Shown: positions 2 through 24,039 of the stretch, in pieces | How the letters are laid out: every line of letters starts with the position of its first letter | Position numbering within the stretch: position 1 is the first letter of the stretch | Virus record (IMG/VR): IMGVR_UViG_3300005617_000406 | Coordinates: 1 to 29,006 of that record | Length of the DNA stretch: 29,006 bases | Source of the DNA: a virus | Reading direction: 5' to 3' (one strand) | Translations under genes and position numbers: made by a program | Notes under the pieces: generated by a model | What the model was told of the DNA's origin: nothing | What the model saw: the letters and a program-made list of their open reading frames with translations, nothing else | Databases searched by the model: none

Positions 2-403
2 CGGCGGGCCGTCACGTCGATCAAGAAAGGACTGCGCCGTGCGGTCCACGCGGTCGGCTTGCGCTGGGGCCTGGCCGACGGCGTCACGTTTCATGTGATC
101 CGGCATTCGATCGCGACCATCCTGGCGAATCCCCACCTTGTCGGCGCGTTGACCGAGCGCCTGCGCGCCGACGTCATGGGGCATCGCGAGATCCGGACAA
201 CGCAGCAGTACACGCACCTCAACGTGTCGGTGCAGGAAGGCCCGCACGAATTACTCGCGGCCGTCCTGCCCGGGTTGCGCGCCGCCGCCGCGCCGAAACC
301 GCGTCGGGAAAAAGTTAGAGGACTCGGATCCGCGACCCCGCCAAAAGGCCAACAAAACCGCGTGATCGCCTTCGGGACGCCGCAGGCGAAGAAACCGGCG
401 TAA
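2..403 (+). CDS. int: Tyrosine recombinase (phage integrase), C-terminal part
   Basis: The frame is open from the left edge, so only the C-terminal catalytic part (133 residues) is present. It contains the box-II signature of tyrosine recombinases: HVIRHSIAT gives the H-x-x-R pair, MGH follows about 40 residues later, and QQYTHL carries the nucleophilic tyrosine. These enzymes cut and join attP and attB through a 3'-phosphotyrosine intermediate. The C-terminal tail after the tyrosine is basic (PKPRREK...). The last third of the gene overlaps a 13-bp repeat that recurs twice past the stop codon, and a tRNA 3' fragment starts 48 nt after the stop. Both fit an int gene lying directly next to its own attP. 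The catalytic Arg-I and the N-terminal arm- and core-binding domains lie outside the window. Confidence 0.93.
   Translation, partial: RRAVTSIKKGLRRAVHAVGLRWGLADGVTFHVIRHSIATILANPHLVGALTERLRADVMGHREIRTTQQYTHLNVSVQEGPHELLAAVLPGLRAAAAPKPRREKVRGLGSATPPKGQQNRVIAFGTPQAKKPA
311..323 (+). repeat. 13-bp direct repeat, copy 1 (candidate integrase arm site)
   Basis: AAAGTTAGAGGAC is found here inside the 3' end of the integrase gene, and identically at 522-534 and 558-570. All three copies have the same orientation and flank the tRNA-derived core. Repeated short sites on both sides of a core are what lambda-type integrases bind with their N-terminal domain; assigning that role here is inference. Confidence 0.6.
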
Positions 404-421
404 GCGTGTGAATTTGCTCAG

Positions 422-437
422 CAAACCACGACAAACC
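422..437 (+). repeat. Tandem CAAACC pair spaced one helical turn
   Basis: CAAACC occurs at 422-427 and again at 432-437, ten bases apart, between the integrase stop codon and the tRNA-like core. Two identical hexamers on the same DNA face near attP would suit an excisionase or another accessory protein. The match is short and could be chance. Confidence 0.3.
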
Positions 438-451
438 GACGATCTACCCCT

Positions 452-500
452 CTGATTCGTAATCAGCAGGTCCGCGGTTCAAGTCCGCGCGCCGGCTCCA
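452..500 (+). other. attP core: 3' part of tRNA-Thr(CGT)
   Basis: The segment folds as the 3' part of a tRNA: anticodon-stem bases CTGA, loop TTCGTAA (anticodon CGT, threonine), stem TCAG, variable loop AGGTC, T-arm CGCGG/CCGCG with loop TTCAAGT, acceptor strand CGCCGGC, discriminator T and CCA. No matching 5' half (D-arm and GCCGGCG acceptor strand) lies upstream where it should, at about 425-450, so this is not a complete tRNA. Position 27 (T451) fails to pair with position 43 (C467), so identity with the host tRNA probably starts at 452. Tyrosine integrases commonly cross over at the anticodon loop and carry such a 3' copy so the host tRNA stays functional. Strand is that of the tRNA. Confidence 0.85.
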
Positions 501-521
501 AGCAGGTCAAGCAGTTACAGG

Positions 522-534
522 AAAGTTAGAGGAC
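522..534 (+). repeat. 13-bp direct repeat, copy 2 (candidate arm site)
   Basis: This is a second exact copy of AAAGTTAGAGGAC, 22 bases past the CCA end of the tRNA fragment. A degenerate copy (9 of 13 matches, aligned 511-523) lies 11 bases upstream, about one helical turn away, so two proteins could bind side by side. Confidence 0.6.
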
Positions 535-557
535 GGCCATCAGGTGGGACTGGACCA

Positions 558-570
558 AAAGTTAGAGGAC
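558..570 (+). repeat. 13-bp direct repeat, copy 3 (candidate arm site)
   Basis: This is the third exact copy of AAAGTTAGAGGAC, 36 bases after copy 2 and in the same orientation. It marks the outer edge of the presumed P' arm of attP. Confidence 0.6.
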
Positions 571-750: not shown

Positions 751-1185
751 ATGGGTCGCCGCTCCTGTGTCCTCGTCCTCGCGGTTGTTCTCAGCGCCTG
801 CGGCTCGGCGCCGCTCGCCCCCACCCCGCCGCCCGTCGCGAATGTCGCCGGGAGCTGGTCGGGGACGTTCCAGTACACCTCCGGCAATGCCAGCCCGAAC
901 ATCCTGGCGATGGTCGCGTCCTTGTCCCAAGCCGGGGCCACGGTCTCGGGTACCTACACCGCGTTGACGTTTGACGGCACGGTGTCGGGCACGACGACGG
1001 CGACGAGCTTCGCGGGCACGTTCACCTTCAACGGGCGCAACGTCAGCGGCACGGCCTGCACCGGCACCTTTGCGGCGAGTGGCAGTGCGGGGAGCGGATC
1101 GACGGTGACGTGGACGAGTCCGGCTGTGGTCGGGAATTGCACGGGGCTCCCGGGCGGGATCACGGTCGCGCTACAGCGGCGTTAG
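751..1185 (+). CDS. Small secreted lipoprotein (possible lysogenic conversion gene)
   Basis: This 144-residue protein begins MGRRSCVLVLAVVLSAC, a short basic and hydrophobic leader ending in a lipobox (LSAC, cysteine at residue 17), so it should be lipidated and anchored in an envelope membrane. A Pro-rich linker (APTPPPV) leads into a Ser/Thr/Gly-rich beta domain (VAGSWSGTFQY...) with two further cysteines. Small lipoproteins of this style are frequent in Acidobacteriota. The frame is open upstream to 544, but that part is Arg/Pro-rich with no signal. The ATG at 751 is chosen because the leader starts there; AGAAAG about 12 nt upstream is a weak ribosome site. It lies just outside the attP arm and opposite to the late operon, like a cargo gene expressed from the prophage. 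Function is unknown; surface exclusion is one possibility. Confidence 0.75.
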   Translation: MGRRSCVLVLAVVLSACGSAPLAPTPPPVANVAGSWSGTFQYTSGNASPNILAMVASLSQAGATVSGTYTALTFDGTVSGTTTATSFAGTFTFNGRNVSGTACTGTFAASGSAGSGSTVTWTSPAVVGNCTGLPGGITVALQRR

Positions 1186-1752: not shown

Positions 1753-1998
1753 TCAGCGCGAGCCCCGCCGCGTCAGCCCCTCGTCGGCCGGGTCGTCGGC
1801 CGATCGGCGGTACGGAGCGCGACTCGCGCGCCAGAGCGAATCCGTGAAGATCCGCACGCGCCCGCCCGGCGTCCGCACATAGTCCAGCTTCCCCCCGTCG
1901 AGCCAGTGGTAGATCGTTCGGCGGCTGACCTGCGCGCGTTCGGCGGCCTGCAGGATGTTCACCGTCGCCCTGCCATCCAGTTCGCCCGCCGGGGTCAT
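1753..1998 (-). CDS. Excisionase/MerR-type winged HTH DNA-binding protein
   Basis: The 81-residue protein carries VNILQAAERAQVSRRTIYHWLDGGKL, followed by RTPGGRVRIF. This is the pattern of the excisionase-family (HTH_17) domain: helix-turn-helix at about residues 13-36 and a wing with basic residues. Such proteins act as recombination directionality factors or small regulators. It lies about 1.2 kb from attP at the end of the late operon, so a Xis role is plausible. Being embedded in the late transcript is unusual for Xis, and a regulatory role is equally possible. Its ATG overlaps the upstream stop codon by four bases (ATGA). Confidence 0.75.
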   Translation of the reverse strand: MTPAGELDGRATVNILQAAERAQVSRRTIYHWLDGGKLDYVRTPGGRVRIFTDSLWRASRAPYRRSADDPADEGLTRRGSR

Positions 1999-2606
1999 CG
2001 CTGCGCCCGCACGATCTGCACGAGTTCTTCAACGGCGATCGCAATCCGCGTGAGGAGCGTGGTCACCGTGGGCGACGCCGGGATCGGATCGGGACCGGGC
2101 GGGGGCGCCGGATCGGGGCCAGGTGCCGCGAAGGTGAAGACGCCGGTATCCTGTGCCGGCACCGTGATCAGCACGATGTTCGATCGCTCCTCGACACTGC
2201 GCACATCCTTGAGGCGCTGATCGCCCGCCACGACCATGAAGCCGACTTCGTCCCCCGGCTGCGGCTGCTGTCCCGCCATCGCCGGCGAGCGCATCCACCA
2301 GTCCTGCGCGCCGTGGCTGAACGGCCCACCCACGCCGAGCCGCGATTGCCAGAACTCGATACACCCGGTCGCGACCCACTCGCCCCGCACGCGGATGATC
2401 GCCCAGAGCGTGAACTGGATCGGCCCGTCCCAGCCGGGCGGCGTGACATCGGGCCAGCGGTCCGGGCCGTCGCGTTTGTCGAAGGTGACGCGGACGTCAG
2501 TGGCCTCGAAGTCGAGCCGCGTGATCGTCGTCGTGATCGGCCAGGCGCGGACGTCGGGACTGTCGACGATGGTGATCGTGTCGACGGGAATGGCGTCAGG
2601 GGTCAT
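1995..2606 (-). CDS. Conserved phage-type hypothetical protein, 203 aa
   Basis: The protein opens with a beta-strand-rich part (TITIVDSPDVRAWPITTTITRLDF), then DGPDRWPDVTPPGWDGPIQFTLWAIIRVRGEWVATG and EFWQ, a Trp-rich core. From about residue 155 it has a Pro/Asp linker (APGPDPAPPPGPDP) and ends in a helix (LLTRIAIAVEELVQIVRAQ). I remember similar sequences from bacterial and phage genomes but no assigned function. It is followed by ATGA-coupled small genes and preceded by a membrane coiled-coil protein, so it lies in what would be the lysis or accessory end of the late operon. No endolysin motif is visible. Confidence 0.8.
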   Translation of the reverse strand: MTPDAIPVDTITIVDSPDVRAWPITTTITRLDFEATDVRVTFDKRDGPDRWPDVTPPGWDGPIQFTLWAIIRVRGEWVATGCIEFWQSRLGVGGPFSHGAQDWWMRSPAMAGQQPQPGDEVGFMVVAGDQRLKDVRSVEERSNIVLITVPAQDTGVFTFAAPGPDPAPPPGPDPIPASPTVTTLLTRIAIAVEELVQIVRAQR

Positions 2607-2821
2607 ACCGGATCCTTCACTCGCGGCCAGAGGAAGTGGCCCATCGCCCGATGCCGGGCGACGGCGTCGGGATCGGGCACTTCCAATTCACAGGTCACGC
2701 AGAAATGGCGCGGGTCGAGCAGGCGCGCCAGTGTCGCGGCGCGGGTTTCGTGCGGATGCGCGGCGCGATCGAGATGGCCGCAGAGGAGCGCCCAGAGGGC
2801 GGTGTCGACCTCGGGGATCAT
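2603..2821 (-). CDS. Small C2H2-type zinc-finger-like protein, 72 aa
   Basis: MIPEVDTALWALLCGHLDRAAH begins a short helical part. Residues 41-62 read C-V-T-C ... H-R-A-M-G-H, a CxxC pair followed after 12 residues by H-x4-H, matching the spacing of a classical C2H2 zinc finger. The reading frame is open further upstream, but this ATG is chosen because it overlaps the upstream stop in an ATGA junction, as at most other junctions of the operon. The downstream end likewise overlaps the start of 1995-2606. The function is unknown. Confidence 0.7.
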   Translation of the reverse strand: MIPEVDTALWALLCGHLDRAAHPHETRAATLARLLDPRHFCVTCELEVPDPDAVARHRAMGHFLWPRVKDPV

Positions 2822-3417
2822 GGTGTCGGCGCCCGCCGATCCGGGCTCGCCGGATCCCAGGGGGTCGGTTTCTCGGCCGCGATCAAGCCCGCTTCCGCGA
2901 GATGTTCGATCTTGACGTTCACGTGGTTGGCTTCCTGATACGCGGCTTTGGCGGCGAGCGTGCCCTCTTCCGTTTTCGCGGTGTTGTCGAGCACGAGCGC
3001 CGTCAGGGCATCGACCGCGGTGATCGCGACGCCTTCCGCCTTCTGGACGGTTGTCGCGAGCATGAGTTGATCGTGCCGGGTCTGCAGGGCCAGTTCGGCG
3101 GCGTGGGCGCGGTTGACGCTCGCGACTTCCGCGTTGTCCGCCGCGACCTTGAGCGCGAGCGCGTCGGCGGTCGCCTGCACTTTCGACGCGAGCTCGACGG
3201 CGAGCGCCTTCCGGTCCTCCAAGAGCCACTGGCGATCGCGCGTCGTGCGTTCGTCGACGAGCTTCGCGGCGACGGCGAGGGCGTTCGCGGCCCGCTCGGC
3301 GACGTCCGCCTCGTGGTTTCTCGCGTTACGATAGTTCATCGACAGCCGCCAGAGCGTCGCGATCTGTCCGATCGCGAGCGTCACCATGCCGGCGATCACG
3401 CCAGCGTCCATTGTCAC
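2818..3417 (-). CDS. Membrane-anchored coiled-coil protein (possible spanin- or holin-associated)
   Basis: The N-terminus (MDAGVIAGMVTLAIGQIATLWRL) is a single membrane segment at about residues 5-25. It is followed by a long Ala-, Glu- and Lys-rich region (about 28-165) with heptad-like spacing that should form a coiled coil, and a short Pro-rich tail. A GTG start at 3417 is chosen because GGAG lies seven bases upstream; an ATG six bases further in is the alternative. One N-terminal membrane helix plus a long helix recalls i-spanins (Rz) or holin accessory proteins, but the length (199 residues) and the lack of any sequence signature keep this tentative. Confidence 0.75.
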   Translation of the reverse strand: MTMDAGVIAGMVTLAIGQIATLWRLSMNYRNARNHEADVAERAANALAVAAKLVDERTTRDRQWLLEDRKALAVELASKVQATADALALKVAADNAEVASVNRAHAAELALQTRHDQLMLATTVQKAEGVAITAVDALTALVLDNTAKTEEGTLAAKAAYQEANHVNVKIEHLAEAGLIAAEKPTPWDPASPDRRAPTP

Positions 3418-3420
3418 AGG

Positions 3421-3702
3421 TCAACTCCGATACCGCTGCAGCGCCCGGGTGTGATAGGTCAAGGCGGGCTCGCCGCGAATAGTGCCGAGAATCACCCGAA
3501 TCCCCCACCGGACCAGGCGGTGCTCGTAATTGGGATAGTAGAGATCGCGCCGAAACATCTGCATCGCCATCTCCTGCAGATCGGCGCGTTGGTGCGGGGT
3601 GATGTCGCCGAACGGCCCGGGCAGATGCTCGCCGTGGGCGCGCAGGTAGGCCACGCGCAACGCAATCCGCGCGCGCGCTTCGGAGGACAGGAGCCCGCTC
3701 AT
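3421..3702 (-). CDS. Hypothetical protein, 93 aa
   Basis: MSGLLSSEARARIALRVAYLRAHGEHLPGPFGDITPHQRADLQEMAMQMF is predicted mostly helical. The C-terminal half is basic and aromatic (YYPNYEHRLVRWGIRVILGTIRGE). There are no membrane segments or cysteine motifs, and I recognise no family. The ATG overlaps the stop of the beta-helix gene in an ATGA junction, so its translation probably depends on that gene. It lies between a beta-helix protein and a membrane coiled-coil protein. Confidence 0.7.
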   Translation of the reverse strand: MSGLLSSEARARIALRVAYLRAHGEHLPGPFGDITPHQRADLQEMAMQMFRRDLYYPNYEHRLVRWGIRVILGTIRGEPALTYHTRALQRYRS

Positions 3703-4979
3703 GGCGGCGTCTCCACGTTGCCGCTGAGCGTGCCGCTCGTCACGAAGCGCGGCCACGCCTGCCCGACACTCGCGCCGTCGCCGAACACCCCGTACGCCGT
3801 GCGCGGCCACGTGTTGCCGGTGATCGTCAGGTTCGTCGCCAGGGCCGTGCCGGTGAAGTAGACCGTCGACGTCAGCCCCGTCCCCGCGAAGGTGTTCTGC
3901 GTGATCGCCAGGTCCGCCGGGCCGCCGGCGATCTGGATCATGCGTTTGCTCCCGCCGCGATACTCGAGCGGGTTGAGATCCGTGACGCGGTTGCCGGTGA
4001 TCGTGACATTCTGCATGGACACCGACGGTTGGGTATCGTCGAGCGCCAACAGGTTGAAGGCGGCGCTCCCGTGCATCAGCTCGTTGCGGCGCACCACGAC
4101 ATTGCGGATGGTCGACCACGGCGCGTGGCCGGTCTGATTGCGCACCGTCGCCGAGACGAGGTAGCCGCCCTGGCCCTGCCGCCAGCAGTATTCAATCCGA
4201 TTCAACTCGACGAGCGCGCCGTCCACGGCTTTGAGTTCGAGCCGCGTTTTGACCCCGATCGGGAGCGCCATCCACTCGGGCTTCGCGGTGATCCAGTTGT
4301 TGCGGATCGTGACGTCGCGCGGCATCCGCGCCGCGGTGATGGCGTCACCGCCGCCGATCAGGATCGTCTCGGAGCCCGCCCGGAGAAAGTTATCGTCAAT
4401 CAACAATCCCGGCGCCAGGTCGTAGGCGAGGATCGCTTGCGCGTCATCACCGGGTGACGGCAGGAAACAGTCATCCACATAACTGCGCCGGATGACGACG
4501 GCGCCGTTGCCATTCGCCAGGATGCCGTGCTTGGCGCCGCGGACCGGATCGCCGAGCACCCGCACCCGATCGAGCGTCACGCGGGCGCCGGCGATCGTCA
4601 CGATCGTCAGACGCGGATCGGGCGCGCGGACCTCGACCCCGACGAGCGTCACGTCATCCGCGGGAATCGTGATCCCGCCCCGGAAGGACGGGAGCGGCGT
4701 CGTCGCATCCATCCGCGTGAGCGGCACGACACTCTGGAGCGTCACCGATCGCGTGAGGACGAGCGGCGCGGGATAGACCAGCGTCGGGCTGAGCGTCAGG
4801 AGCGCCCCGGGGGCTGCGGCGGTGAGCGCCGCATCCAAGGCGGCCGGCGTGGCCAGCCCGGTGAGCGCGGGCGCCTGGAGCGCCTGGAGGGCCTCTTCGA
4901 GGAGGGCGCGGGCTTTCGGGAGATCCTGCGGCGACGTCAGCGTGAGCGCGACGACGAGCGCGAGGATCCCGCGCCTCAT
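3699..4979 (-). CDS. Right-handed beta-helix protein with signal peptide
   Basis: Residues 1-16 (MRRGILALVVALTLTS) look like a Sec signal peptide. A helical stretch (PKARALLEEALQAL) follows, and from about residue 60 repeating turns of the parallel beta-helix (PbH1) type, each with a strand then a short Asn-containing turn: NVVVRRNEL, NVTITGNRV, LAITQNTF, LTITGNTW. The fold is typical of pectate-lyase-like enzymes and phage tailspikes that bind or cut polysaccharide. A tailspike would not normally carry a signal peptide, so the protein may be exported from the infected cell, or the leader may be a membrane-association or lysis signal. The gene overlaps both neighbours by four bases. No catalytic residues can be assigned. 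Confidence 0.85.
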   Translation of the reverse strand: MRRGILALVVALTLTSPQDLPKARALLEEALQALQAPALTGLATPAALDAALTAAAPGALLTLSPTLVYPAPLVLTRSVTLQSVVPLTRMDATTPLPSFRGGITIPADDVTLVGVEVRAPDPRLTIVTIAGARVTLDRVRVLGDPVRGAKHGILANGNGAVVIRRSYVDDCFLPSPGDDAQAILAYDLAPGLLIDDNFLRAGSETILIGGGDAITAARMPRDVTIRNNWITAKPEWMALPIGVKTRLELKAVDGALVELNRIEYCWRQGQGGYLVSATVRNQTGHAPWSTIRNVVVRRNELMHGSAAFNLLALDDTQPSVSMQNVTITGNRVTDLNPLEYRGGSKRMIQIAGGPADLAITQNTFAGTGLTSTVYFTGTALATNLTITGNTWPRTAYGVFGDGASVGQAWPRFVTSGTLSGNVETPP

Positions 4980-5185
4980 GTGATCCGCAGCGACGGCCCG
5001 CTACCACCCAGCATCTGCACGAGGTACAACACGACGACCAAGACAATCACGATGTACACGACACTTTGAATCGGCTGCGGCAGATCAAACGCTGCCATCA
5101 ACGCCCGCGCCGCCCAGATGACGACACAGAGCACGATCAGCCAGAGCAGGAGCGCGATCGGATTGAGCGCGAGCGCCAACATCAT
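4976..5185 (-). CDS. Two-helix membrane protein, holin-like
   Basis: The 69-residue protein is almost wholly hydrophobic. One membrane helix spans about residues 4-28 (ALNPIALLLWLIVLCVVIW) and a second about 40-59 (SVVYIVIVLVVVLYLV), separated by a short polar turn with LPQPIQ; the tail is short. Size and topology fit a class II holin, which opens the inner membrane to end infection, and small proteins of this shape are common in late operons. The start is the first of two adjacent ATGs, overlapping the upstream stop (ATGA). The holin assignment rests only on topology and position. Confidence 0.8.
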   Translation of the reverse strand: MMLALALNPIALLLWLIVLCVVIWAARALMAAFDLPQPIQSVVYIVIVLVVVLYLVQMLGGSGPSLRIT

Positions 5186-6423
5186 GGGGTTGTGTCCTCT
5201 TCCGTCTTCTGCGACGCGGCGAGCAGGCGCGCGAGGATCGCGGCCCGCGCCGACTGGGCCGGCCCCGTCGCGTGTTTCATCGCCTGCGCCCCGATCGACT
5301 TCAGCCACGCACTCCGATCGGCCAGCGCCCCGACGGCGAGCCCGGGATTTTTCACCATGCCGACAATCCCACTGAGGCCCATCGGATCGCGGTTCGCCGT
5401 GCGGCCGACGGCGCTTTCGAGCGCATCGCGCGTTGTCATCTGCCGCGCTTCCTGCTGCCAGAGCGGTTCGAGGTCGGGAATCTTCGCGCGCAGTTGCCCG
5501 GTGATCGATGCGCGCCCGGCCTTCTCGGCCTCGACCGTCGCCCCGCCGAGGCGGCCGAACTTCCCGCGCAGGTTCTTGCCGGTGTTGATCGCGAACTCGT
5601 GTGCGAGGTCCGCGGGCATCTGGGCCATGCCGGTCACCGGGTCGGACACGTGCGGGTTATTCGCGAAGTTCTCGCGGACGAGATTCACGGCGGCGGTGTC
5701 CGGCTGCGCGTTGATCTGCTTGCCGAACGTCTTCGCGTTGGTGTCGCCGATGGCCCGGGTCACGTCGAACGGATCGACGGTCACGCCCTGGCCGGCGCCG
5801 GCCTGAATCTTGGCGTGCGCGGCGGCGTCGGTGGCGTCGAGCGCCTCCTGGGCATTCCCCAGGCTGCGCGGCGAGACGATCCGGCCCTCGTCGAGCACGG
5901 CCTGCGCGATGGCCGACTTGGACGGAAACCCCGCGCCGGTGCGCGCCTTGACCAACGTCTCGGTCGGCTTCAGCGCGCTCTGCATCAAGCGCAGGGAGCC
6001 GCGCTTGAGCATCGGCGGCAGAACTTGGCCGGCGGCCAACTGCCCCGCGATACTCGTCAGCCCCCCGGCCGCGCCCGCCACGTCGCCGCGCACCAGATGG
6101 GCGATGGGCGTGTCGGGATTGATGCGTTGCGCCTCGATCGACCCGGAAATATCGGCCGAGCGGGCGGCGTTCTCGCCGATGCGCTTCAAAGTGTCGCGCG
6201 GATGCGAGACGGCATCCGCAATCGCGCCGGGCCAGGTCTGCACCTGCGGCAGCTTCGCGAGAAACTCCGAGCCGAAGCGGCTGAGCGCCGAGGGCGGTTC
6301 CGCGGCGGGGGGCTTTGCGCCGCCGCCGCCGAGGTGCGCGACGATGTCGGCCTCCGACGGCGGGCTGTCGGCTTCCACCTCGAACTTGCGCCCGTCGGTC
6401 AGCTCGACGTGATACTTCGGCAT
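5182..6423 (-). CDS. Probable virion protein, 413 aa
   Basis: The N-terminus (MPKYHVELTDGRKFEVEADSPPSEADIVAHL) looks like a small beta-grasp-style cap. A Gly/Pro-rich hinge follows, and then a mainly helical body with an Ala/Gly-rich hydrophobic stretch (LVRGDVAGAAGGLTSIAGQLAAGQVLPPML, about 110-140) that could insert in a membrane. This arrangement is seen in internal or ejected virion proteins of short-tailed phages, but I recognise no specific family. It is the last of four large proteins lying between the fibre-like protein and the holin-like protein. Its ATG overlaps the upstream TAA by one base. Confidence 0.75.
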   Translation of the reverse strand: MPKYHVELTDGRKFEVEADSPPSEADIVAHLGGGGAKPPAAEPPSALSRFGSEFLAKLPQVQTWPGAIADAVSHPRDTLKRIGENAARSADISGSIEAQRINPDTPIAHLVRGDVAGAAGGLTSIAGQLAAGQVLPPMLKRGSLRLMQSALKPTETLVKARTGAGFPSKSAIAQAVLDEGRIVSPRSLGNAQEALDATDAAAHAKIQAGAGQGVTVDPFDVTRAIGDTNAKTFGKQINAQPDTAAVNLVRENFANNPHVSDPVTGMAQMPADLAHEFAINTGKNLRGKFGRLGGATVEAEKAGRASITGQLRAKIPDLEPLWQQEARQMTTRDALESAVGRTANRDPMGLSGIVGMVKNPGLAVGALADRSAWLKSIGAQAMKHATGPAQSARAAILARLLAASQKTEEDTTP

Positions 6424-7583
6424 TACTTGATTTCCGTGATCGACTTGATCTTCACGCTGCTCGTCGCGGCCGGCGGCGGCGGCGGGGCTTTCCCGGTCCC
6501 GAGATCGCCCTCATCGAAGATGTCGGCCGTGTCGATCTGGTAGCGGCGCGCCAGGCTGTCGATCCGCTTCTTGTCGCTGTCGGCGAAGTGGTGCATCCCG
6601 TCGGCCATCTGCTGCGCCAGCGTGACGAAGGTTTCGAGATCCTTGATCGGCACGCCGGGGCCGCCCTGCGTGATGCGCTGCCCGATGCCCTGGAGCCGGC
6701 CCATCAGCGCCACACCCTGCGGCGTGCGGTTGAACTCGCTCTCGCGCACGACCGAGGTCGGGTCGAGGATCTTGTTGAACTCGTTGATCACGACCTGCGA
6801 CCCGGCGTTGACGTCGCCGCGTTTTGCCGCCTCGAGCCCCTGTTCCATCTTCTGCACGTGAACGCCGATTTCCCGCACGGGCTTGATCGCCTTCTGCCAG
6901 TTGCCCTGCAGATCCTTGGTGGCGCGGAACGATTGCGCGGGCGTCAGCGACGACCCGCCGCCCTGACTGGCCCGCGCGCCTTTGAGATCGGCGAGCTGTT
7001 GCGCGATGCTGTTCTTCCAGTCCTGCTGCTCGCTGCGGTCTTTGAGCGCCGCATCGGCGCGGAGGTTGTCCGCCGTGCGATCCGACTGCAGCGCCGCGTC
7101 ATTCTGCTGCTTGGTGCTCGCGCCTTTCAGGAACAGCCGCCCCTTCATCGTCGGGCTACTGGCGATCGTCCCCGGCAGATCGCCCACCGGCGGCGCATCG
7201 TTCGCCAGGAGACTCGCCGGCGCCTCGGGCGTCGGGATCCCCTTGGCCGTCAAGAGCGAGCCGCGGCCCCCGGTCTGCAACATCGCGACGCCGGGATCCG
7301 AGCCGGGCATCACCGTCCCGCTCGGAATCTGATCGGCGAGCGCAGACGCCCGCCCGACCGATCGATCGAGATCGGCCGCCTGGTGTTCGCGCACCGTCTC
7401 GGCCAACCGGTCGCTGCGATCGGTATCGGTCTGATCGAGCCGCCGCGTCTGCAGGCCGTTCTCGAACTGCTGCTGTTGCTGCAGATCGGCATAGTGCTTG
7501 GCCGCGATCCGCTGCTTGAGCAGTTCGCGAAAGCCGTCCGCCGCCGCCGAGGCGCCGTAGGCGCCGGAGAGTCCAAGTCCCAC
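6423..7583 (-). CDS. Probable internal/ejection virion protein, 386 aa
   Basis: The protein is largely helical and glutamine-rich near the start (HYADLQQQQQFENGLQTRRL, about 30-50), with long charged coiled-coil stretches. A conserved-looking segment at about 265-320 (INEFNKILDPTSVVRESEF...GVPIKDLETFV) resembles a motif I have seen in unannotated virion-associated proteins of many phages. Helical, Gln-rich proteins downstream of the nozzle gene are typically carried inside the capsid and ejected with the DNA. The start is a GTG with a good GAGGAG ribosome site seven bases upstream. Confidence 0.8.
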   Translation of the reverse strand: MGLGLSGAYGASAAADGFRELLKQRIAAKHYADLQQQQQFENGLQTRRLDQTDTDRSDRLAETVREHQAADLDRSVGRASALADQIPSGTVMPGSDPGVAMLQTGGRGSLLTAKGIPTPEAPASLLANDAPPVGDLPGTIASSPTMKGRLFLKGASTKQQNDAALQSDRTADNLRADAALKDRSEQQDWKNSIAQQLADLKGARASQGGGSSLTPAQSFRATKDLQGNWQKAIKPVREIGVHVQKMEQGLEAAKRGDVNAGSQVVINEFNKILDPTSVVRESEFNRTPQGVALMGRLQGIGQRITQGGPGVPIKDLETFVTLAQQMADGMHHFADSDKKRIDSLARRYQIDTADIFDEGDLGTGKAPPPPPAATSSVKIKSITEIK

Positions 7584-7597
7584 AGGTCCGCTCCTCT

Positions 7598-8449
7598 TCA
7601 GCGCCAGTCTTCGAAGTCGTCGCCGTTGCCGCTCCCGCCGCCGCCTTTGTTCACCCAGTTCCAGTACTCATCCATCACGTCGACCTGTTGGCCGGGGAGT
7701 TGCGCCGGGTCGACCGGATCGCCGGTGTTGCCGTAGTTTTCCGGCCACTGATCGAGGAACTGATCGGTCGTGACGTCGGCCTCCGGCAGGTCGGGATCCC
7801 AGAGCTTCGGGTCGCGGCCTTCGGGATCCTCGGGGTCCGCCCAGCCGGTGAAGTCGCGGCCGAACGACGGCCCGGTCAACGCGCCGCCCGCCGACGGTTT
7901 GTCCCCCTGCACGCTGCCGCCGCTGCCGCCGCGGATCTTGTCCGCCAGGGCTTTGAGGAGTTTCCCGATGTCGCCGCCCGCCCCGCCGAGCGATCCCGCC
8001 GCGCCGGCCGCTTTGAGGAGCTTGTCCAAGGCGCTTTCGTTCGGGAGCGGCGCGAGCACCGGCGCCGCGGGGAGCGCGAAGCTCGGACTCTTGACGCGGG
8101 CGCCCGCCACCTGGGCGAGGTCCGCGCCGGCTTGCCGCGTCGCCGGGCCGAAGTTCGCGGGGGTCAAGCCTCCCGTCGATTGCGGCACCGGGATATTGCC
8201 GACCTGCTGCGTCGCGCCGGTCCAGGCGAAGGGCTTGATGTTCGCCATCGTGTCGCCCTGCGCCGTCTGCTGGGCGCTGAGCGCCGGGCCTTGCAGCGCG
8301 GCCTGCATCCGCGTGCGGAAGATGTCGGAGGCGGCGCGGGCCTGCTCCTGATTGACGCCCGCTTCGGTGACGCGCCCCTGCGCGCGCGCCTTTTCGATGT
8401 CGGCGAGGATCGAGCCGATGGATCCGATGGTGTCAGCGGTATCAGCCAT
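7598..8449 (-). CDS. Probable virion protein, 283 aa, Gly/Pro/Asp-rich
   Basis: The N-terminal part (IGSILADIEKARAQGRVTEAGVNQEQARAASDIFRTRMQAAL) is helical. It is followed by a low-complexity Gln/Pro/Gly region, a Gly-rich hydrophobic hinge (AAGAAGSLGGAGGDIGKLL) and a very acidic C-terminus (DPEDPEGRDPKLWDPD..., ending GGGGSGNGDDFEDWR). I recognise no family. AAGG lies seven bases before the ATG. The position among large, helical, disordered proteins suggests a capsid-internal or tail-associated component. Confidence 0.75.
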   Translation of the reverse strand: MADTADTIGSIGSILADIEKARAQGRVTEAGVNQEQARAASDIFRTRMQAALQGPALSAQQTAQGDTMANIKPFAWTGATQQVGNIPVPQSTGGLTPANFGPATRQAGADLAQVAGARVKSPSFALPAAPVLAPLPNESALDKLLKAAGAAGSLGGAGGDIGKLLKALADKIRGGSGGSVQGDKPSAGGALTGPSFGRDFTGWADPEDPEGRDPKLWDPDLPEADVTTDQFLDQWPENYGNTGDPVDPAQLPGQQVDVMDEYWNWVNKGGGGSGNGDDFEDWR

Positions 8450-8465
8450 GTGTTAGCCTTCGCGG

Positions 8466-8786
8466 ATGAACAGACGGGACTTCTTCGGTCACACGGCTGG
8501 CGTCGTGCTGTTCGGCGCGACGGCGAAACATGCCCAGGCCGGAGCCCACTTCGGCCGCGACGCCCCGCCCGCCGATTTTCCGGAGTTCAACTGGATCCAA
8601 TTTCAAGACGCGATCAGCGGCATCGTGCCGATGCGCGGCGACCATCTCGTCTCGTGCGCGGATGGCCTCTACAGATTGCGCGGCTGCGAGGGGCCATTCA
8701 AGATTGACGAGCGCGATCCGCGGCGTCTCTGGATCAGGCATGTGCGCTGGGACATGACGCAAGTCGAGTTGTGGCATCGACACTGA
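8466..8786 (+). CDS. Small Tat-signal exported protein on the opposite strand
   Basis: This 106-residue frame starts MNRRDFFGHTAGVVLFGATAKHAQA, a twin-arginine leader (RRDFF, hydrophobic core, AQA cleavage site). The mature part (FPEFNWIQFQDAISGIVPMRGDH...VELWHRH) has two cysteines and no known domain. Codon-position composition favours this strand: by my count G+C is about 65%, 46% and 79% at positions 1, 2 and 3, the normal coding order here, and it is reversed for the opposite frame. There is no ribosome site and no clear promoter. A competing - strand frame (8442-8795) overlaps the upstream stop in an ATGA junction, so the strand is not settled. If real, it is an exported cargo protein inserted in the virion operon. 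Confidence 0.5.
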   Translation: MNRRDFFGHTAGVVLFGATAKHAQAGAHFGRDAPPADFPEFNWIQFQDAISGIVPMRGDHLVSCADGLYRLRGCEGPFKIDERDPRRLWIRHVRWDMTQVELWHRH

Positions 8787-8791
8787 GGCCT

Positions 8792-10111
8792 TCATGGTCC
8801 CGTCACGTTCTGCGAGGCCATCGCGTTGAGATAGGCCGAGTATTTGCCCATGTCGACCCCCATGCCTTCGCGGCGCAGGGTCGCGTCGAGATTCGCCAAC
8901 TGGAGTTGCAGGCTGCGCGCCGTCTCTGAATCCCCCGATTGCAGCGCCATCTGCAGATAGCCCTGGAGCTCGGCGCGGCGCGACTGGACTTCCTTCATGA
9001 TGAGATTGGCGCGCAGACTCGCCTGCGCCCCGGTCGCGCGCTCGTTGCTCTGCTGGATGCCTTGGTTGAGCGCGTTGGTGTCCAGCCCGCCGCCGCCTTG
9101 GCCGTAGAGATGCTCGGCCAGGGCGGTGCGTTCCTTGTCCATCCCCCGCGAGTTTTCGTCGCGCATGGCGGTGACGGCGCCGGCAATGCCGCTGCTGGTC
9201 TCGTTCACCGGTTCCCCCGCGGCGCGGATGCGCTCGAGGAGCTGCTGGCGGATCTGATCCGTCCACGCGCTCGTGCCGGTGGTCGTCTGGGTGCCCGACG
9301 GTTGGTAGAGCGCGTCGGTGCCGGTCGGAGCCGCGACGAGGCCCGTCGTCGTTGGCGCCTGAATGCCCGCGTTCAGATTCTTCGGCGTGTGCTGGTCGCC
9401 GCCGCCGGTGTGATAGACGCCTTTGGCGTCGTAGCCGGTATCGACCCCCGTCCCGCCGAGGTTTTTGTCGAGCCGGTCGCGCATGTACGCCCAGTCGCCG
9501 GTCTCCACCCCGCGGCGCAGCCAGTAGGCGCGATCGCGGAAGCCGGAGCCCTCGCCGCCGTCGGTGACGCCGTACTTGGCGAAGAGCGCGTCGATCTCGG
9601 CTTCGGGGCCGCTCCCCGCCGCCGCCGCGCCGGTGGTCGCGCCCGCCGTCGCGTTGCCGTCCGTGCCGTAGATGTAGTCGGCCGTCCGCTGCGCTTCCTC
9701 CCGGCTCACGCCGCTGGCAATCGTCTCCTGCAGGAATTGCTGTTTCGTCCGCGTGTTGCCCGCCTGGTTGTGCGCGCCGCCCGTCGTGGCCCCGCCGCCG
9801 CTCCCCGCCCCGGCCGTGGTGACGCCCGTCGTGTCGTCGTAGACCGTGTCGCTCCGGGTGTCGGTCGGGGCGGCGATCACCGGGGCCGGCGTCACGGGGT
9901 CCGGCGTGGGCAGCGGGGTCGGCGTCGGCTGATCCGCCGTGGGATCCTCGTCGCCGGCGCGCCAGGTGCCGCCGCCGCCGCCGCTGGCGGTCTGCACGAA
10001 GTTGGCGGTCTGCAGCGTGTCCTGGCCGGCGCCGCCGCCGAGTTGCGCGGCGATCCGCTGCTTGAGCCGCTCGCCGTCGTCCGTGGCCGCCTCGTCGTCG
10101 TCTCGGATCAT
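8792..10111 (-). CDS. Large low-complexity virion protein, 439 aa
   Basis: The start (MIRDDDEAATDDGERLKQRIAAQL) is acidic. A Gly- and Pro/Thr-rich region follows (PTPTPLPTPDPVTPAP at about 60-80, then repeated TTGG/GAG stretches), then folded helical parts (KQQFLQETIASGVSREEAQRTADYIYG; EIDALFAKYGVT) and a C-terminal helical, Gln-rich part (MKEVQSRRAELQGYLQMALQSGDSETARSLQLQLANLDATLRREG). It reads as a virion or ejection protein. The frame is open for another 128 codons upstream, but the ATG at 10111 is chosen because it overlaps the previous TGA by one base. Confidence 0.75.
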   Translation of the reverse strand: MIRDDDEAATDDGERLKQRIAAQLGGGAGQDTLQTANFVQTASGGGGGTWRAGDEDPTADQPTPTPLPTPDPVTPAPVIAAPTDTRSDTVYDDTTGVTTAGAGSGGGATTGGAHNQAGNTRTKQQFLQETIASGVSREEAQRTADYIYGTDGNATAGATTGAAAAGSGPEAEIDALFAKYGVTDGGEGSGFRDRAYWLRRGVETGDWAYMRDRLDKNLGGTGVDTGYDAKGVYHTGGGDQHTPKNLNAGIQAPTTTGLVAAPTGTDALYQPSGTQTTTGTSAWTDQIRQQLLERIRAAGEPVNETSSGIAGAVTAMRDENSRGMDKERTALAEHLYGQGGGGLDTNALNQGIQQSNERATGAQASLRANLIMKEVQSRRAELQGYLQMALQSGDSETARSLQLQLANLDATLRREGMGVDMGKYSAYLNAMASQNVTGP

Positions 10112-10761
10112 CACGCCACCTCGTAGAACATCTCGCCGTTGATCGACGTCGTGCCCGCCGCCGCCGCGAAGTTCGCCGCGTCCTGGCGGATGAAGAAGAT
10201 CGACCGCGGATTCTGCGCCGGGTCGACCACCGCTTCGCCCGGCACGAGGACGCCGTTGTCGCTCAGCCGAATCGCGACGCGGGTCAGGGTCACCGCCTGG
10301 AAGAAGTCCGTCGGGAGCCGCAGGATCAACTGCGTGTTGAGCGGCGCCGCGACCGTCGTCAGCCCGATGTTGAAGACGAGAAACACGGTCTTGCCCACCA
10401 CCATGTACTTGATCGTCGCCAGCGTCGGGCTGACCGTCCACGTCATCGTGCCGAGGCCGACAAAGGCCAGCGTGCTGAAGGGCAGCGGGATCCATTCCCC
10501 CAGCGGCGTCCGGCGCCCGTGTTCGCTGATCGACCCGCTCGCCGTGATCGTCTTGTGCGTGTCGTCGAGGTTGTGCTCGGTGTGATAGCCGGCGCCGATC
10601 GTCGCGACGAGGTTGGTCAACTGCAGGGCGAGGAACCCGCGCAGGACACTGAGCACGCCGGGCGTCGCCTCGCCGGGCGCGTCCGCCGCGGGCCGGTCCT
10701 CGCCGCCGGGCCGGTCCTCGACGCCGCGAATCTGCGTGATGTAGGCGAGGCCCAGTTTCAT
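10111..10761 (-). CDS. Tail-fibre-like beta-domain protein, 216 aa
   Basis: After a Pro/Gly/Asp-rich N-terminus, residues about 40-75 hold a short helix and strand. The rest is a beta-rich domain (SGSISEHGRRTPLGEWIPLPFSTLAFV..., TIKYMVVGKTVFLVFNIGLTTV...RLPTDFF..., ending INGEMFYEV). This pattern of beta strands resembles a jelly-roll domain I have seen in uncharacterised fibre or base proteins of environmental phages; that comparison is from memory. It is translated from an ATGA junction directly after the nozzle-like gene, where receptor-binding or tail-tip parts are often encoded. Confidence 0.75.
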   Translation of the reverse strand: MKLGLAYITQIRGVEDRPGGEDRPAADAPGEATPGVLSVLRGFLALQLTNLVATIGAGYHTEHNLDDTHKTITASGSISEHGRRTPLGEWIPLPFSTLAFVGLGTMTWTVSPTLATIKYMVVGKTVFLVFNIGLTTVAAPLNTQLILRLPTDFFQAVTLTRVAIRLSDNGVLVPGEAVVDPAQNPRSIFFIRQDAANFAAAAGTTSINGEMFYEVA

Positions 10762-12692
10762 CCGCTCACCGGATCGTGTTTGGTGAAGGGGAGGACGAGC
10801 CGATCGAGCGACCAGGCGGCGGCGAGCGCCGTCGCGTCGCCGACCTGATGCTGCACGAAACTGACATCCTCGGCGAGCCCCGTCCCCTCGAAGACCCGCG
10901 TCACCCGCGTCTCGCTGCCCACCGCCGTCAGGAGCGCCGTGCCGGTCTTCGTCGTCAGGCCGAAATCACCGGTCACGGTGTCGGTAATGGTCGCCGCCGT
11001 CAACGCCTTGGCGAGCAGGATCGAATCGCCAATCTCGCCGTAGAAGCCCGGCCCGCCCGGCTCATAGGCTTTCGTGACGATGTAGGACTGATAGACGGCG
11101 CCGTTGTCGGTGACGTTGCTGCTGTCGGCGCGCCAGATGAGGACCGGCGTCAGGCTCGGCCCGAGATAGGGTTTCAGATCGCGCGACATCGCCGCACCGA
11201 TCGTCTTGCTGAACATCACCGCGCAGCGCGTGTTCGCCAGCGGATCGGAGGACGGCACGCGCGTCCACCCATCGGTGTTGATGTCGAGGATGTTGAGCGT
11301 GTTCGGGTCGTTGCTCGACCCGGTCGCCCACCAGAACCACACCTGCCGCTTGTCGGCGTGATAGACCGTCACGGCGACGCGCTTGGTGGCCGAGAGATTG
11401 ACCGTCGCCGTCGGGCCGAGGACGTAGTCCTCCATGTTGCGCCCGAGGTATTCGAGGCCGCTGAGCGACCAGCGATAGGCGCCGCGATGCGACATCCAGT
11501 AGAGGGCCGCATTGCCGCGTTTGTCGTCCGCCCGGCAGATGCTCGGAAAACTGATGGCGCCGATACTCTTGCTGATCGCTTCCGCCCGGTAGGGCTGGGC
11601 GACCGCGCCGGTCGACGTCAGGTGCCAGATCTGCCGGTCCTTGAAGGCAAAGAACGTCCCGAAGACCGGGCCGCAGAGCCCCGTCGGCGAGCCGGAATCG
11701 TTCTCGTCGAGGCCCAGGCGGTAGTTGGTCGTCGTGTCGACGCGCTCTTCGTCGAAGACGTCGAGCGAGCCGATCACCGCCGAGAGTTCGATGTCGTCCT
11801 GTTTGTTGGTCGTGACCCAGTTGCCGAACCCGAGGATGCGCGCCTGATCCGCGGCGATAAACTTGTAGGACTTCTGCAACTGATACGTCCCGGTCAACGC
11901 GCTCAGGACGCCGGTGTCGTAGGTGTAGGGCGATTGCGAATCGTCATAGAACGTCGTCCCGATCGCCACCGTCGCGATCCGGTAGAACGTGACGCCGTCG
12001 ATCCCGGCTTCGATCTCCCAGTGCGTCTCGCCTTCGTTGACGACGGTGGCCTGGGTGACGCGCAGGGCCGCCCCGGCGCCGGACGGGACAAAATTCGAGG
12101 CGGCCGACGGTTCGGAGCGCCGCACGGTGATGCCGCTGCGTTGTTCGGTGTTGCGCTGGCGATAGAAGCGCTGGACCGCCGCATAGGCGCCGGCGCCGGT
12201 ATTGGCGAGCGTCGGCCCCGCGGCGGGCGCCGCCAGCCCGGTGCGCCGGATGCTGTTACTGACCGGATCCCAGCAGTGGAGGCGATCGACCGCCGACTTG
12301 TAGGCCAGGAACAACTTGCCGTTGATCGTGGCGCTGGTCACGTCCCAGCCGTTGCCGGTTGGGACATCCTTGATCGTCGGGGTGCTCCACGTCGTCCCGC
12401 CCGCCAGGCGGTTGATGATCGGCGTCGCGGCATCGTCCACGGCCCAGAGCTCGGCGAGCGTTTCATCCGTCCCGGGGACATGGCGGAAGAGCGAGGAGAT
12501 CGTCCCGGTGAAGGTCGTATTGACCATCCCGGCGACGTCGAGGCCGCCGCGCTTGCGGCCCAGGCGCGAGCGGAAGAAGTCGACATTGACCGCATCGGCG
12601 CATTCGGTGTCCTTGATGGCCCACGGATCGTCGGCGCCGTTGCGCCCGCCGCGCAAATCGTCGATGACGAGGCGGCCTTTGCTATCGCCCAC
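10758..12692 (-). CDS. Tail nozzle / DNA-stabilisation-like protein, 644 aa
   Basis: The N-terminus (GRLVIDDLRGGRNGADDPWAIKDTECADAVNVDFFRSRLGRKRGG) resembles the opening of short-tailed-phage tail proteins (P22 gp10 / T7 gp12 type), whose beta-propeller body forms the end of the tail tube. Repeated beta blades are visible with aromatic turns (WDVTSATINGKLFLAYKSAVDRLHCWDP; FFAFKDRQIWHLTSTG; AALYWMSHRGAYRWSLSG). Length and position (adaptor, small gene, this gene) fit a nozzle. Its start overlaps the preceding 87-residue gene by 11 nt. Confidence 0.75.
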   Translation of the reverse strand: MGDSKGRLVIDDLRGGRNGADDPWAIKDTECADAVNVDFFRSRLGRKRGGLDVAGMVNTTFTGTISSLFRHVPGTDETLAELWAVDDAATPIINRLAGGTTWSTPTIKDVPTGNGWDVTSATINGKLFLAYKSAVDRLHCWDPVSNSIRRTGLAAPAAGPTLANTGAGAYAAVQRFYRQRNTEQRSGITVRRSEPSAASNFVPSGAGAALRVTQATVVNEGETHWEIEAGIDGVTFYRIATVAIGTTFYDDSQSPYTYDTGVLSALTGTYQLQKSYKFIAADQARILGFGNWVTTNKQDDIELSAVIGSLDVFDEERVDTTTNYRLGLDENDSGSPTGLCGPVFGTFFAFKDRQIWHLTSTGAVAQPYRAEAISKSIGAISFPSICRADDKRGNAALYWMSHRGAYRWSLSGLEYLGRNMEDYVLGPTATVNLSATKRVAVTVYHADKRQVWFWWATGSSNDPNTLNILDINTDGWTRVPSSDPLANTRCAVMFSKTIGAAMSRDLKPYLGPSLTPVLIWRADSSNVTDNGAVYQSYIVTKAYEPGGPGFYGEIGDSILLAKALTAATITDTVTGDFGLTTKTGTALLTAVGSETRVTRVFEGTGLAEDVSFVQHQVGDATALAAAWSLDRLVLPFTKHDPVSG

Positions 12693-12945
12693 GCGCCCCC
12701 TTGTCGGCGGCCAGGGCCGCGCGAATGGCGTGGACGTCGGCGCGTTGCACGAGCCCCGGGGGGACGCGCACCGCGCGATAGTCGTTCGGGTGCAGGTCGG
12801 TCACCTCGACATAGAGATTCCCCGCCGCGTCGCTCGGCACGGTCAGCCCCTCGGCGACTTCGACGATCGCGGCGACACTGCCGTCCGGCGCCAGGCGCGC
12901 ATACTGGCGAAATTCGCGGCCGTCGTGGGTGTCGGGCAGGCCCAT
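12682..12945 (-). CDS. Small hypothetical protein between adaptor and nozzle, 87 aa
   Basis: The protein (GREFRQYARLAPDGSVAAIVEVAEGL...NLYVEVTDLHPNDYRAVRVPPGLV) is beta-rich at the start and ends in a basic helix (VHAIRAALAADKGARGR). I recognise no family. It starts three bases after the adaptor stop and overlaps the nozzle-like start by 11 nt, so it is tightly coupled to both. A minor head-tail or tail-associated part is likely from position only. Confidence 0.75.
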   Translation of the reverse strand: MGLPDTHDGREFRQYARLAPDGSVAAIVEVAEGLTVPSDAAGNLYVEVTDLHPNDYRAVRVPPGLVQRADVHAIRAALAADKGARGR

Positions 12946-12948
12946 CGG

Positions 12949-13923
12949 TCAGCTCCCTGCCGGATACATCGGCCCGAGCGACGACCAGCGCACCGGGATG
13001 GGGCGCAGGGTCGCGATCCGGTCGCCGTCGTTCAAGACCCAACTCCGCAGCGCGTTCTGCCCCTTGAGATACTCGACGCGGGCGAGTGAGTAGCGGGCAT
13101 CGTCTTTGAGTTCGTATTCCTTCATCCGCGCGCCGAGCGCGATCACGTAGTGGAAGTCGGGCGGCAGGAGCGGTTCGTCCGTGTCGTTGACCAAATCGAA
13201 GATCGTGCGCGTCGCGTCAATCGTCTGCACGACCGCCGCCGTCGGGACCGGGAACCACTCGATCGCGAGATAGCGCGCCGCACTCTGCCCGGGGGCAATG
13301 CGCGCGAGTTCGTTCCCCGCCGCGGCGGCATCGAAGAGCGAGATGAAGCCGACGGTCGTCGCGAGGTTGAGATAGACCTTCGCCACTTCGAGGATGTCCG
13401 TCCGCGTGCCCAGCGCGACGCGTGTCGTGCCCGTCAGCGTCGTGCCCGCGACCACCGGGATGTGCGGATAGCCGCCGGTCACGACCGCTTCGACGAAGAC
13501 CTTCTGTGTCGTGTCACTCGCGGAGGAACTGACCGCCCACAGGCCGGTCGCCGCCGCCGGTTGGAACTGCACCGGCTGATAGCCGGCAATGGCGTACTGC
13601 AGCGGGAACCCGCCGGTGAACGCTTGCGCCGGATCCCAACTCCGGAGTTCCGACAACGGCACTTGCGTCAGGACGTGGTTATTGGTGCGGTCGACGATCT
13701 TGCGGATGCGCGCGACGGCTTGCGGCAGACCCGAGCGCGCCACGTTCGCCGTCGTCGTCACCGTCAGGACGTCGTCGCGCAAGCGTTCGATGCCGGGCAG
13801 CGTCAGGAGCTCCCGGTGCGACTCGTTGCAGTAGGCTTTGATCCGATCCGAGACCGCCGTCGCGGGCGTCGTCTGGAACCGCAGCCGCCGATAACAATCC
13901 GCGAGGATGGACGCGAAGGTCAC
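12949..13923 (-). CDS. Head-to-tail adaptor-like protein, 324 aa
   Basis: The N-terminal MTFASILADCYRRLRFQTTPATAVSDRIKAYCNESHRELLTLPG is the kind of helical start seen in phage adaptor proteins (P22 gp4 / gp6-like), which ring the portal after packaging and receive the nozzle. A beta-rich middle (YPHIPVVAGTTLTGTTRVALGTRTDILEVAKV) is inserted, and the C-terminal part (PDFHYVIALGARMKEYELKDDARYSLARVEYLKG) is helical, again like adaptors. The start is GTG directly after the upstream TAA (TAAGTG). The order capsid, adaptor, nozzle supports the assignment. Confidence 0.8.
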   Translation of the reverse strand: MTFASILADCYRRLRFQTTPATAVSDRIKAYCNESHRELLTLPGIERLRDDVLTVTTTANVARSGLPQAVARIRKIVDRTNNHVLTQVPLSELRSWDPAQAFTGGFPLQYAIAGYQPVQFQPAAATGLWAVSSSASDTTQKVFVEAVVTGGYPHIPVVAGTTLTGTTRVALGTRTDILEVAKVYLNLATTVGFISLFDAAAAGNELARIAPGQSAARYLAIEWFPVPTAAVVQTIDATRTIFDLVNDTDEPLLPPDFHYVIALGARMKEYELKDDARYSLARVEYLKGQNALRSWVLNDGDRIATLRPIPVRWSSLGPMYPAGS

Positions 13924-14508
13924 TTACTCACCCACGGACACCGCGAGCTTCCCGGCCTTGATCAGCTGTGCTTCCTTGGTCATCGTCAAAATGTCGTCGT
14001 GCTCGATGCCCTTGTAGTCGAGCATCTCCCGGAGCATGAGTCGCAGCGAGACAAACTGCTGTTTGTTCTCGTTGTTGAACAGGCCCGCGTAGCCCTGGCC
14101 GTCCTTCGCGCCCCGCAGGGCCAGTTCCTCCAGTCGATTCGTGACGCTGTTCATCACGGCGACCACGTTGATCGTGACAGGCGCGCCGTCGTTGAGGGTG
14201 ACGTGATATTCCCCCGGCTCCAGCCGGTTGAAGAGTTCGACTTCTTCCCGGTCGAAACTGTGGAGCATCGGCGTGTTCTTGAAGGGCGCATACACGTCGC
14301 ACTTCAACTCCGGCATCGGGTAATCTTTCTGCCCGCGCAGGTTGAACTGCGAGATGTGCGGCCCGACCAGACACGAACGCCGCCGCGTCTGTTTGAGTTG
14401 TTCCGCCTGCACCACCTGATTCGCGCCGGCAATATCGGCCAGCCGCGCCAGGATGGACGCCATCGTTGGTTCGGGATCGGGCGTTGTCTCGGTCTTCTCG
14501 GGAGCCAT
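13924..14508 (-). CDS. Conserved phage-type hypothetical protein, 194 aa
   Basis: A short disordered N-terminus (MAPEKTETTPDPEPT) precedes a helical segment (ILARLADIAGANQVVQAEQLKQTRR), then a beta-rich part (MPELKCDVYAPFKNTPMLHSFDREEVELFNRLEPGEYHVTLNDG) and a C-terminal helical part (FVSLRLMLREMLDYKGIEHDDILTM). I recognise no family. AAGGA lies about five bases before the ATG. Its place between decoration and adaptor genes suggests a head-completion or minor head role, which is inference. Confidence 0.75.
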   Translation of the reverse strand: MAPEKTETTPDPEPTMASILARLADIAGANQVVQAEQLKQTRRRSCLVGPHISQFNLRGQKDYPMPELKCDVYAPFKNTPMLHSFDREEVELFNRLEPGEYHVTLNDGAPVTINVVAVMNSVTNRLEELALRGAKDGQGYAGLFNNENKQQFVSLRLMLREMLDYKGIEHDDILTMTKEAQLIKAGKLAVSVGE

Positions 14509-14525
14509 AGATCCTTCTCGGAACG

Positions 14526-14551
14526 CGGGGCGGGTGGGAGTCCCCGCCCCG
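14526..14551 (-). promoter_or_regulatory. Perfect 9-bp GC hairpin in the intergenic leader
   Basis: CGGGGCGGG (14526-14534) and CCCGCCCCG (14543-14551) form a perfect nine-pair stem with an eight-base loop, in the 51-nt gap between the decoration-like gene and the next gene. No U run follows on the - strand. It could be a stabilising or processing hairpin that sets the ratio of the upstream decoration-like message to the downstream genes. A terminator is less likely. Confidence 0.5.
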
Positions 14552-14559
14552 ACGTCGAC

Positions 14560-15300: not shown

Positions 15301-15315
15301 GGGAACCTCCTTTCC

Positions 15316-16278: not shown

Positions 16279-16290
16279 AGTGATCTACTT

Positions 16291-17331: not shown

Positions 17332-17420
17332 CGTGTCCTCTGCCCCGCATGTGGCGCGTAGGCGTTTCCGTGTCCGCGTGTGGTGCGTGACATCCCCAAA
17401 AAGCGAGAGCCAAAAAGCCA

Positions 17421-17468
17421 AAGGGCCGCGACTAACAACGCACTTAGCGTCATCAGTCAGCGGCCCTT
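17421..17468 (-). terminator. Leader hairpin / possible attenuator before scaffold gene
   Basis: AAGGGCCGC (17421-17429) pairs perfectly with GCGGCCCTT (17460-17468) across a 30-base loop. On the - strand the stem is followed by TTTGGCTTTTTGG, an interrupted U run. It lies in the 229-base gap between the 40-residue zinc protein and the scaffold gene, the largest break in the structural part of the operon. It could partly terminate the terminase-portal transcript, act as an attenuator, or mark an RNA processing point. The long loop and broken U run make a strong terminator doubtful. Confidence 0.4.
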
Positions 17469-17560
17469 CGCTGATCAGCCCTTGTTCGGTTCTCGCGCGC
17501 CGTGGGCAACGGCGGTTCGGGAGCTACCCTAGCGAGATCCGTCCAACTTAGTCGTCTACA

Positions 17561-24038: not shown

Positions 24039-24039
24039 G

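What the first reader, a model, noticed from the sequence alone, without database searches (positions are those of the whole stretch)
2..570. attP-type arrangement: integrase and virion genes lie on opposite sides of the att core
The integrase ends 48 bases before a tRNA-Thr(CGT) 3' fragment, and the late virion operon lies on the other side of it. In an integrated prophage the att sites bound the element, so int and the virion genes would be on the same side. This order therefore suggests free circular phage DNA or a circularly permuted assembly. A tandem prophage, or two unrelated elements side by side, are the alternatives.
Basis: partly seen in the sequence, partly recalled or inferred. 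Interest (0 to 1): 0.7.

Follow-up and report, generated by a model that had tools for sequence, protein, structure and literature searches.

The report
Joined attP site of temperate phage
This is the ordinary docking site that a temperate phage of Acidobacteria (Vicinamibacterales) uses to insert itself into a threonine tRNA gene, caught in its un-inserted, joined form; it is textbook in kind but firmly indicates the phage's host group and insertion site.

Summary
The window is a whole 29,006-base linear virus contig. It opens inside a tyrosine integrase gene (C-terminal 133 aa, 2-403). After 48 bases comes a 49-base core (452-500), identical to the 3' part (anticodon stem to CCA) of intact tRNA-Thr(CGT) genes in six Vicinamibacterales genomes. 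Beyond the core lies a converging phage virion operon.

The reading as attP is supported. A 13-mer, AAAGTTAGAGGAC, occurs at -141, +22 and +58 around the core, as integrase arm sites would. In four integrated elements of the same order with related integrases, paired repeats sit at similar distances but at opposite ends of the element (three of four pairs are clear) and do not match host flanks. Here both arms flank one core. Three other viral contigs with related integrases show integrase - tRNA fragment - converging gene block; two have terminal repeats (circular assemblies), and one of these uses the same tRNA-Thr(CGT).

A tandem prophage junction cannot be told from free DNA in this contig. 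Two unrelated elements side by side is unlikely. New member of a known kind; low general interest.

The parts
2..403 (+). tyrosine integrase, C-terminal 133 aa; 5' part lost at the contig edge
   Evidence: PF00589 E 2e-8; phrog_216 and phrog_1 integrase; 31-44% identity to four integrases of Vicinamibacterales elements
311..323 (+). P-side arm-like repeat AAAGTTAGAGGAC, inside the integrase coding tail, 141 bases before the core
   Evidence: exact 13-mer, three copies; 15-base match to the other side, 0 of 300 shuffles
452..500 (+). attP core: 3' part of tRNA-Thr(CGT), anticodon stem to CCA
   Evidence: 49 of 49 bases equal to intact tRNA-Thr(CGT) genes of six genomes
522..534 (+). P'-side arm-like repeat, first copy (+22)
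   Evidence: exact 13-mer
558..570 (+). P'-side arm-like repeat, second copy (+58)
   Evidence: exact 13-mer
751..1185 (+). small lipoprotein-like gene beside attP, probably cargo (moron)
   Evidence: lipobox-like start by eye; relatives in 10 of 162 host genomes, best 46% identity; no Pfam hit
1753..1998 (-). small MerR/HTH_17-type DNA-binding protein, candidate excisionase
   Evidence: HTH_17 E 4e-7; phrog_66 excisionase and regulator E 1e-4; function inferred
1995..22626 (-). late virion operon converging on attP (adaptor 12949-13923, major capsid 15316-16278, portal by synteny 18953-21121, large terminase 21118-22626)
   Evidence: family hits; synteny of 6423-22626 with viral contigs
22623..24038 (-). 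beta-helix tail-spike-like protein
   Evidence: Beta_helix E 2e-20; phrog_2234 tail spike E 4e-14

Best explanation
Bases about 311-570 are the joined phage attachment site (attP) of a temperate phage of Vicinamibacterales (Acidobacteriota). The integrase would exchange strands between this site and the 3' part of the host tRNA-Thr(CGT) gene (attB). The phage carries its own copy of the tRNA from the anticodon stem to CCA, so the tRNA gene is restored on integration. Once inserted, the virion end with the P' repeats would follow the restored tRNA, and the integrase with the P repeat would end at a 3' fragment followed by host DNA. The order seen here is the un-integrated one, most likely from free (circular or concatemeric) phage DNA. 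Shown: core identity with intact host tRNA genes, matching repeats on both sides of one core, the same order in related circular-type contigs, opposite-end placement in related integrated elements. Inferred: that the repeats bind integrase, that the integrase is active, and that the DNA was free.
For: Core of 49 of 49 bases equals tRNA-Thr(CGT) 3' ends in six genomes of one order, one intact copy each. The related integrases found in that order all lie in elements bounded by 50-58 bp direct repeats of tRNA-Leu 3' ends. In these the integrase-side repeat 138-147 bases from the core recurs at the other element end (13, 14 and 24 exact bases in G066, G127, G074; only 9, not significant, in G103), against 6-8 for available host flanks and at most 10 between elements. 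In the window 15 bases recur on both sides of a single core. Viral contigs G185, G186, G187 have integrase - tRNA 3' fragment - converging genes; G185 and G186 have terminal repeats of 127 and 68 bases; G185 uses tRNA-Thr(CGT), has a 12-base repeat at -139 and +46, and its right-hand genes include capsid, portal and terminase.
Against: The contig has no terminal repeat, so circularity is not shown for this phage itself. No integrated copy of this phage was found, so its attL and attR were not seen. Arm repeats are weak in G103, G186 and G187 in a 24-base window test, where the window only equals the shuffled maximum. The window's virion genes are mostly unrelated in sequence to those of G185-G187.
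Confidence: 0.9

Rival explanations
1. Tandem prophage: two copies of the same phage integrated in series, with the window covering their junction. Such a junction has the same sequence as attP.
For: The junction sequence would be identical; no terminal repeat proves a circle for this contig.
Against: Needs a special arrangement; none of the four related integrated elements shows it; two related contigs of the same order are terminally redundant at one genome length, although tandem arrays could also assemble that way.
Confidence: 0.1
2. Two unrelated elements side by side, or an attR: the integrase belongs to one integrated element, the core is its attR fragment, and what follows is host DNA or a different prophage.
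For: The lipoprotein gene 751-1185 has relatives in host genomes; in G066 and G127 an integrase followed by a tRNA fragment is indeed attR.
Against: The repeat inside the integrase gene recurs exactly at +22 and +58, whereas attR host flanks of relatives share at most 8 bases; no similarity of 501-2000 to the flanks of six host tRNA-Thr genes; same order in terminally redundant contigs.
Confidence: 0.04
3. Misassembly at the 49-base repeat, joining the integrase side of one element to the virion side of another.
For: A 49-base repeat present in attB, attL, attR and attP forms is a natural misjoin point for short-read assembly (inference).
Against: The 13-mer repeats match across the join, as expected for one element.
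Confidence: 0.04

Closest known systems
attP sites of Cluster K mycobacteriophages such as CrimD and Pixie (PMC3203893)
   Same: core equal to the 3' part of a tRNA or tmRNA gene beside a tyrosine integrase gene, short arm-type repeats on both sides; Pixie has a 47 bp core in tRNA-Lys with mostly directly oriented arms; MerR-type Xis
   Different: there attP lies 5' of the integrase gene, here 3' of it with the P repeat inside the integrase coding tail; different host phylum; integration was shown experimentally there, not here
Tyrosine-integrase elements in tRNA-Leu genes of Vicinamibacterales (G066, G127, G074, G103, found here)
   Same: related integrase, core from the anticodon region to the tRNA 3' end, repeats about 140 bases from the core
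   Different: integrated, tRNA-Leu instead of tRNA-Thr, different repeat sequences
Phage lambda attP (from general knowledge)
   Same: attP lies between the integrase gene and the end of the late region; arm sites on both sides of a core
   Different: lambda's core is short and not in a tRNA gene

Membership tests
attP of a tyrosine-integrase temperate phage | tyrosine recombinase gene next to the site | tested here: met
   PF00589 E 2e-8; C-terminal motifs aligned with relatives; N-terminal arm-binding domain not in the contig
attP of a tyrosine-integrase temperate phage | core identical to a chromosomal attB | tested here: met
   49 of 49 bases in six host genomes
attP of a tyrosine-integrase temperate phage | arm-type repeats on both sides of the core | tested here: met
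   13-mer at -141, +22, +58; binding not tested
attP of a tyrosine-integrase temperate phage | phage DNA of the same element on both sides, as a circle | tested here: inconclusive
   shared repeats and relatives agree, but this contig is linear without terminal repeat
attP of a tyrosine-integrase temperate phage | integrase-catalysed recombination with attB | not testable with these tools
   needs an experiment
attR of an integrated prophage | host chromosomal DNA directly after the core on the far side from the integrase | tested here: not met
   repeats matching the integrase side follow the core; no similarity to the tRNA-Thr flanks of six hosts

The most novel reading that the evidence does not exclude
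In this integrase group the 3' end of the integrase gene doubles as the P arm: the variable protein tail is partly dictated by the DNA repeats that the same protein would bind, so that tail and arm change together from phage to phage while the distance to the core stays near 140 bases.
Probability: 0.35. Interest if true: 0.35.

Novelty: new member of a known kind. Interest (0 to 1): 0.22.

Why it matters
It gives a likely host group (Vicinamibacterales) and insertion site (tRNA-Thr CGT) for an uncultured phage group whose best capsid match among named phage records is only about 30% identical. It also shows that a joined attP can be recognised in an incomplete metagenomic contig from paired arm repeats. 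[quoted passage not shown]

Tried and rejected
Viral-contig searches with the 133-aa integrase or a 35-base piece of the core found nothing; an alignment of related integrases did. Capsid-related phages with integrases (G008, G011, G012, G020) carry distant integrases with no recognisable tRNA fragment nearby, so they do not bear on this core. The ARAGORN tRNA-Pro at 4842-4915 was rejected as probably spurious: it lies antisense in a beta-helix ORF and Rfam gives no match. Inverted repeats between the two sides were tested and not supported. No prophage of this phage was found in 162 genomes of the order; the one capsid relative (G182) is on a 36 kb contig in which no tRNA was found.

Full report
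What is there. The window is the whole of a 29,006-base virus record, linear, without terminal repeats. It begins inside a tyrosine integrase gene (2-403, +; Phage_integrase E 2e-8). The stop codon is followed by 48 bases and then by 452-500, the 3' part of a tRNA from the anticodon stem to CCA. From about 2 kb onward the minus strand carries a virion operon converging on the site: adaptor, major capsid, large terminase and tail spike by family hits, and a portal named by position and synteny only. The 6.4-22.6 kb part is syntenic with other viral contigs.

The host site. The exact 3' sequence was found in six genomes, all titled Acidobacteria or Vicinamibacterales. In each it is the end of an intact tRNA-Thr(CGT), in one copy and identical over all 49 bases. 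The six genomes appear together in the order-level search, where 38 of 162 genomes have the site within three mismatches and none shows two copies. Left of the core, phage and host sequences diverge at once. So the phage carries only the 3' part and would restore the tRNA gene on integration.

Why attP and not attR. Four genomes of the order carry integrases related to the window's (31-44% over the alignment). Each lies in an element bounded by direct repeats of 50-58 bases made of a tRNA-Leu 3' end: G066 about 55 kb, G127 about 42 kb, G074 a 41.9 kb contig that ends exactly at both core copies, and G103 about 48 kb. In these the stretch 138-147 bases from the core on the integrase side recurs at the other end of the element: 13 exact bases in G066, 14 in G127, 24 in G074; G103 has only a degenerate version (9 bases, not significant). 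Matches to the host flanks available for G066, G127 and G103 were 6-8 bases, and matches between different elements at most 10. In the window the corresponding repeat, AAAGTTAGAGGAC, lies at -141, +22 and +58 around a single core. Both arms beside one core is the joined state. Repeats of this layout are read as arm-type integrase sites in mycobacteriophages such as CrimD and Pixie (PMC3203893); binding was not tested here.

Other phages with the same arrangement. An alignment of the integrases reached five closer viral contigs. Two stop at the integrase end (L092, L093), consistent with trimmed proviruses; the integrase of L092 is identical to that of G066. The other three have integrase - tRNA 3' fragment - further genes: G185 (tRNA-Thr CGT, as here), G186 (tRNA-Leu CAA) and G187 (tRNA-Leu CAG). 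G185 and G186 have terminal repeats of 127 and 68 bases, as circular assemblies do. In G185 the repeat GGACTTTCGGGA stands at -139 and +46, and the genes right of the core include capsid, portal and terminase on the minus strand, with a Doc-type toxin gene next to the site. In a 24-base ungapped comparison G066, G127 and G074 exceed all shuffles, the window equals the shuffled maximum, and G103, G185, G186 and G187 do not stand out; between-element comparisons reached 21 of 24. That test is therefore less specific than the exact-match test, and the arm claim is strong for the window, G066, G127 and G074, supported by an exact 12-mer in G185, and weak for the rest.

How it most likely works. 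The integrase would bind the arm repeats and the core, pair the site with the tRNA-Thr(CGT) gene, and exchange strands within the tRNA part, leaving a complete tRNA at one end and a 3' fragment at the other. The small MerR/HTH_17 protein at 1753-1998 (phrog_66, E 1e-4) is a candidate excisionase; that is inference. The lipoprotein-like gene 751-1185 has relatives in host genomes and looks like cargo placed beside attP.

What remains open. Free circular DNA, a concatemer and a tandem prophage junction have the same sequence here. Free DNA is preferred because tandem arrays need a special arrangement and related contigs are circular-type, not because this contig proves it. The missing part, about 11-14 kb if the genome is like the 40-43 kb relatives, holds the rest of the integrase.

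Verdict. The feature is a new member of a well-known kind; its use is in indicating host and site.

Noticed in passing
window 311-323; integrase 3' ends in G066, G127, G103, G185, G186, G187: The integrase-side repeat lies inside the coding region of the variable integrase tail in all of these; in G074 it lies outside, between integrase and core.
   Followed up: partly
L036 (G008) 2293-2560: A capsid-related phage contig with a 127-base terminal repeat has GGTGTCGCAAAAGGTGTCGCA just after its integrase and nearly the same about 220 bases on, suggesting an attP without a tRNA-like core.
   Followed up: no
L073 and L083 (G074 contig 44), both ends: The 41.9 kb element contig in a host genome ends exactly at the two 50-base core copies, as if circular and integrated forms or several sites co-occurred.
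   Followed up: no
L122-L124 (G185) 23569-24317: AbrB-like and Doc-like toxin genes sit directly beside attP on the P' side, where the window has a lipoprotein-like gene.
   Followed up: no
window 4842-4915: ARAGORN calls a tRNA-Pro(TGG) antisense to a beta-helix ORF; Rfam does not, so it is probably spurious.
   Followed up: partly
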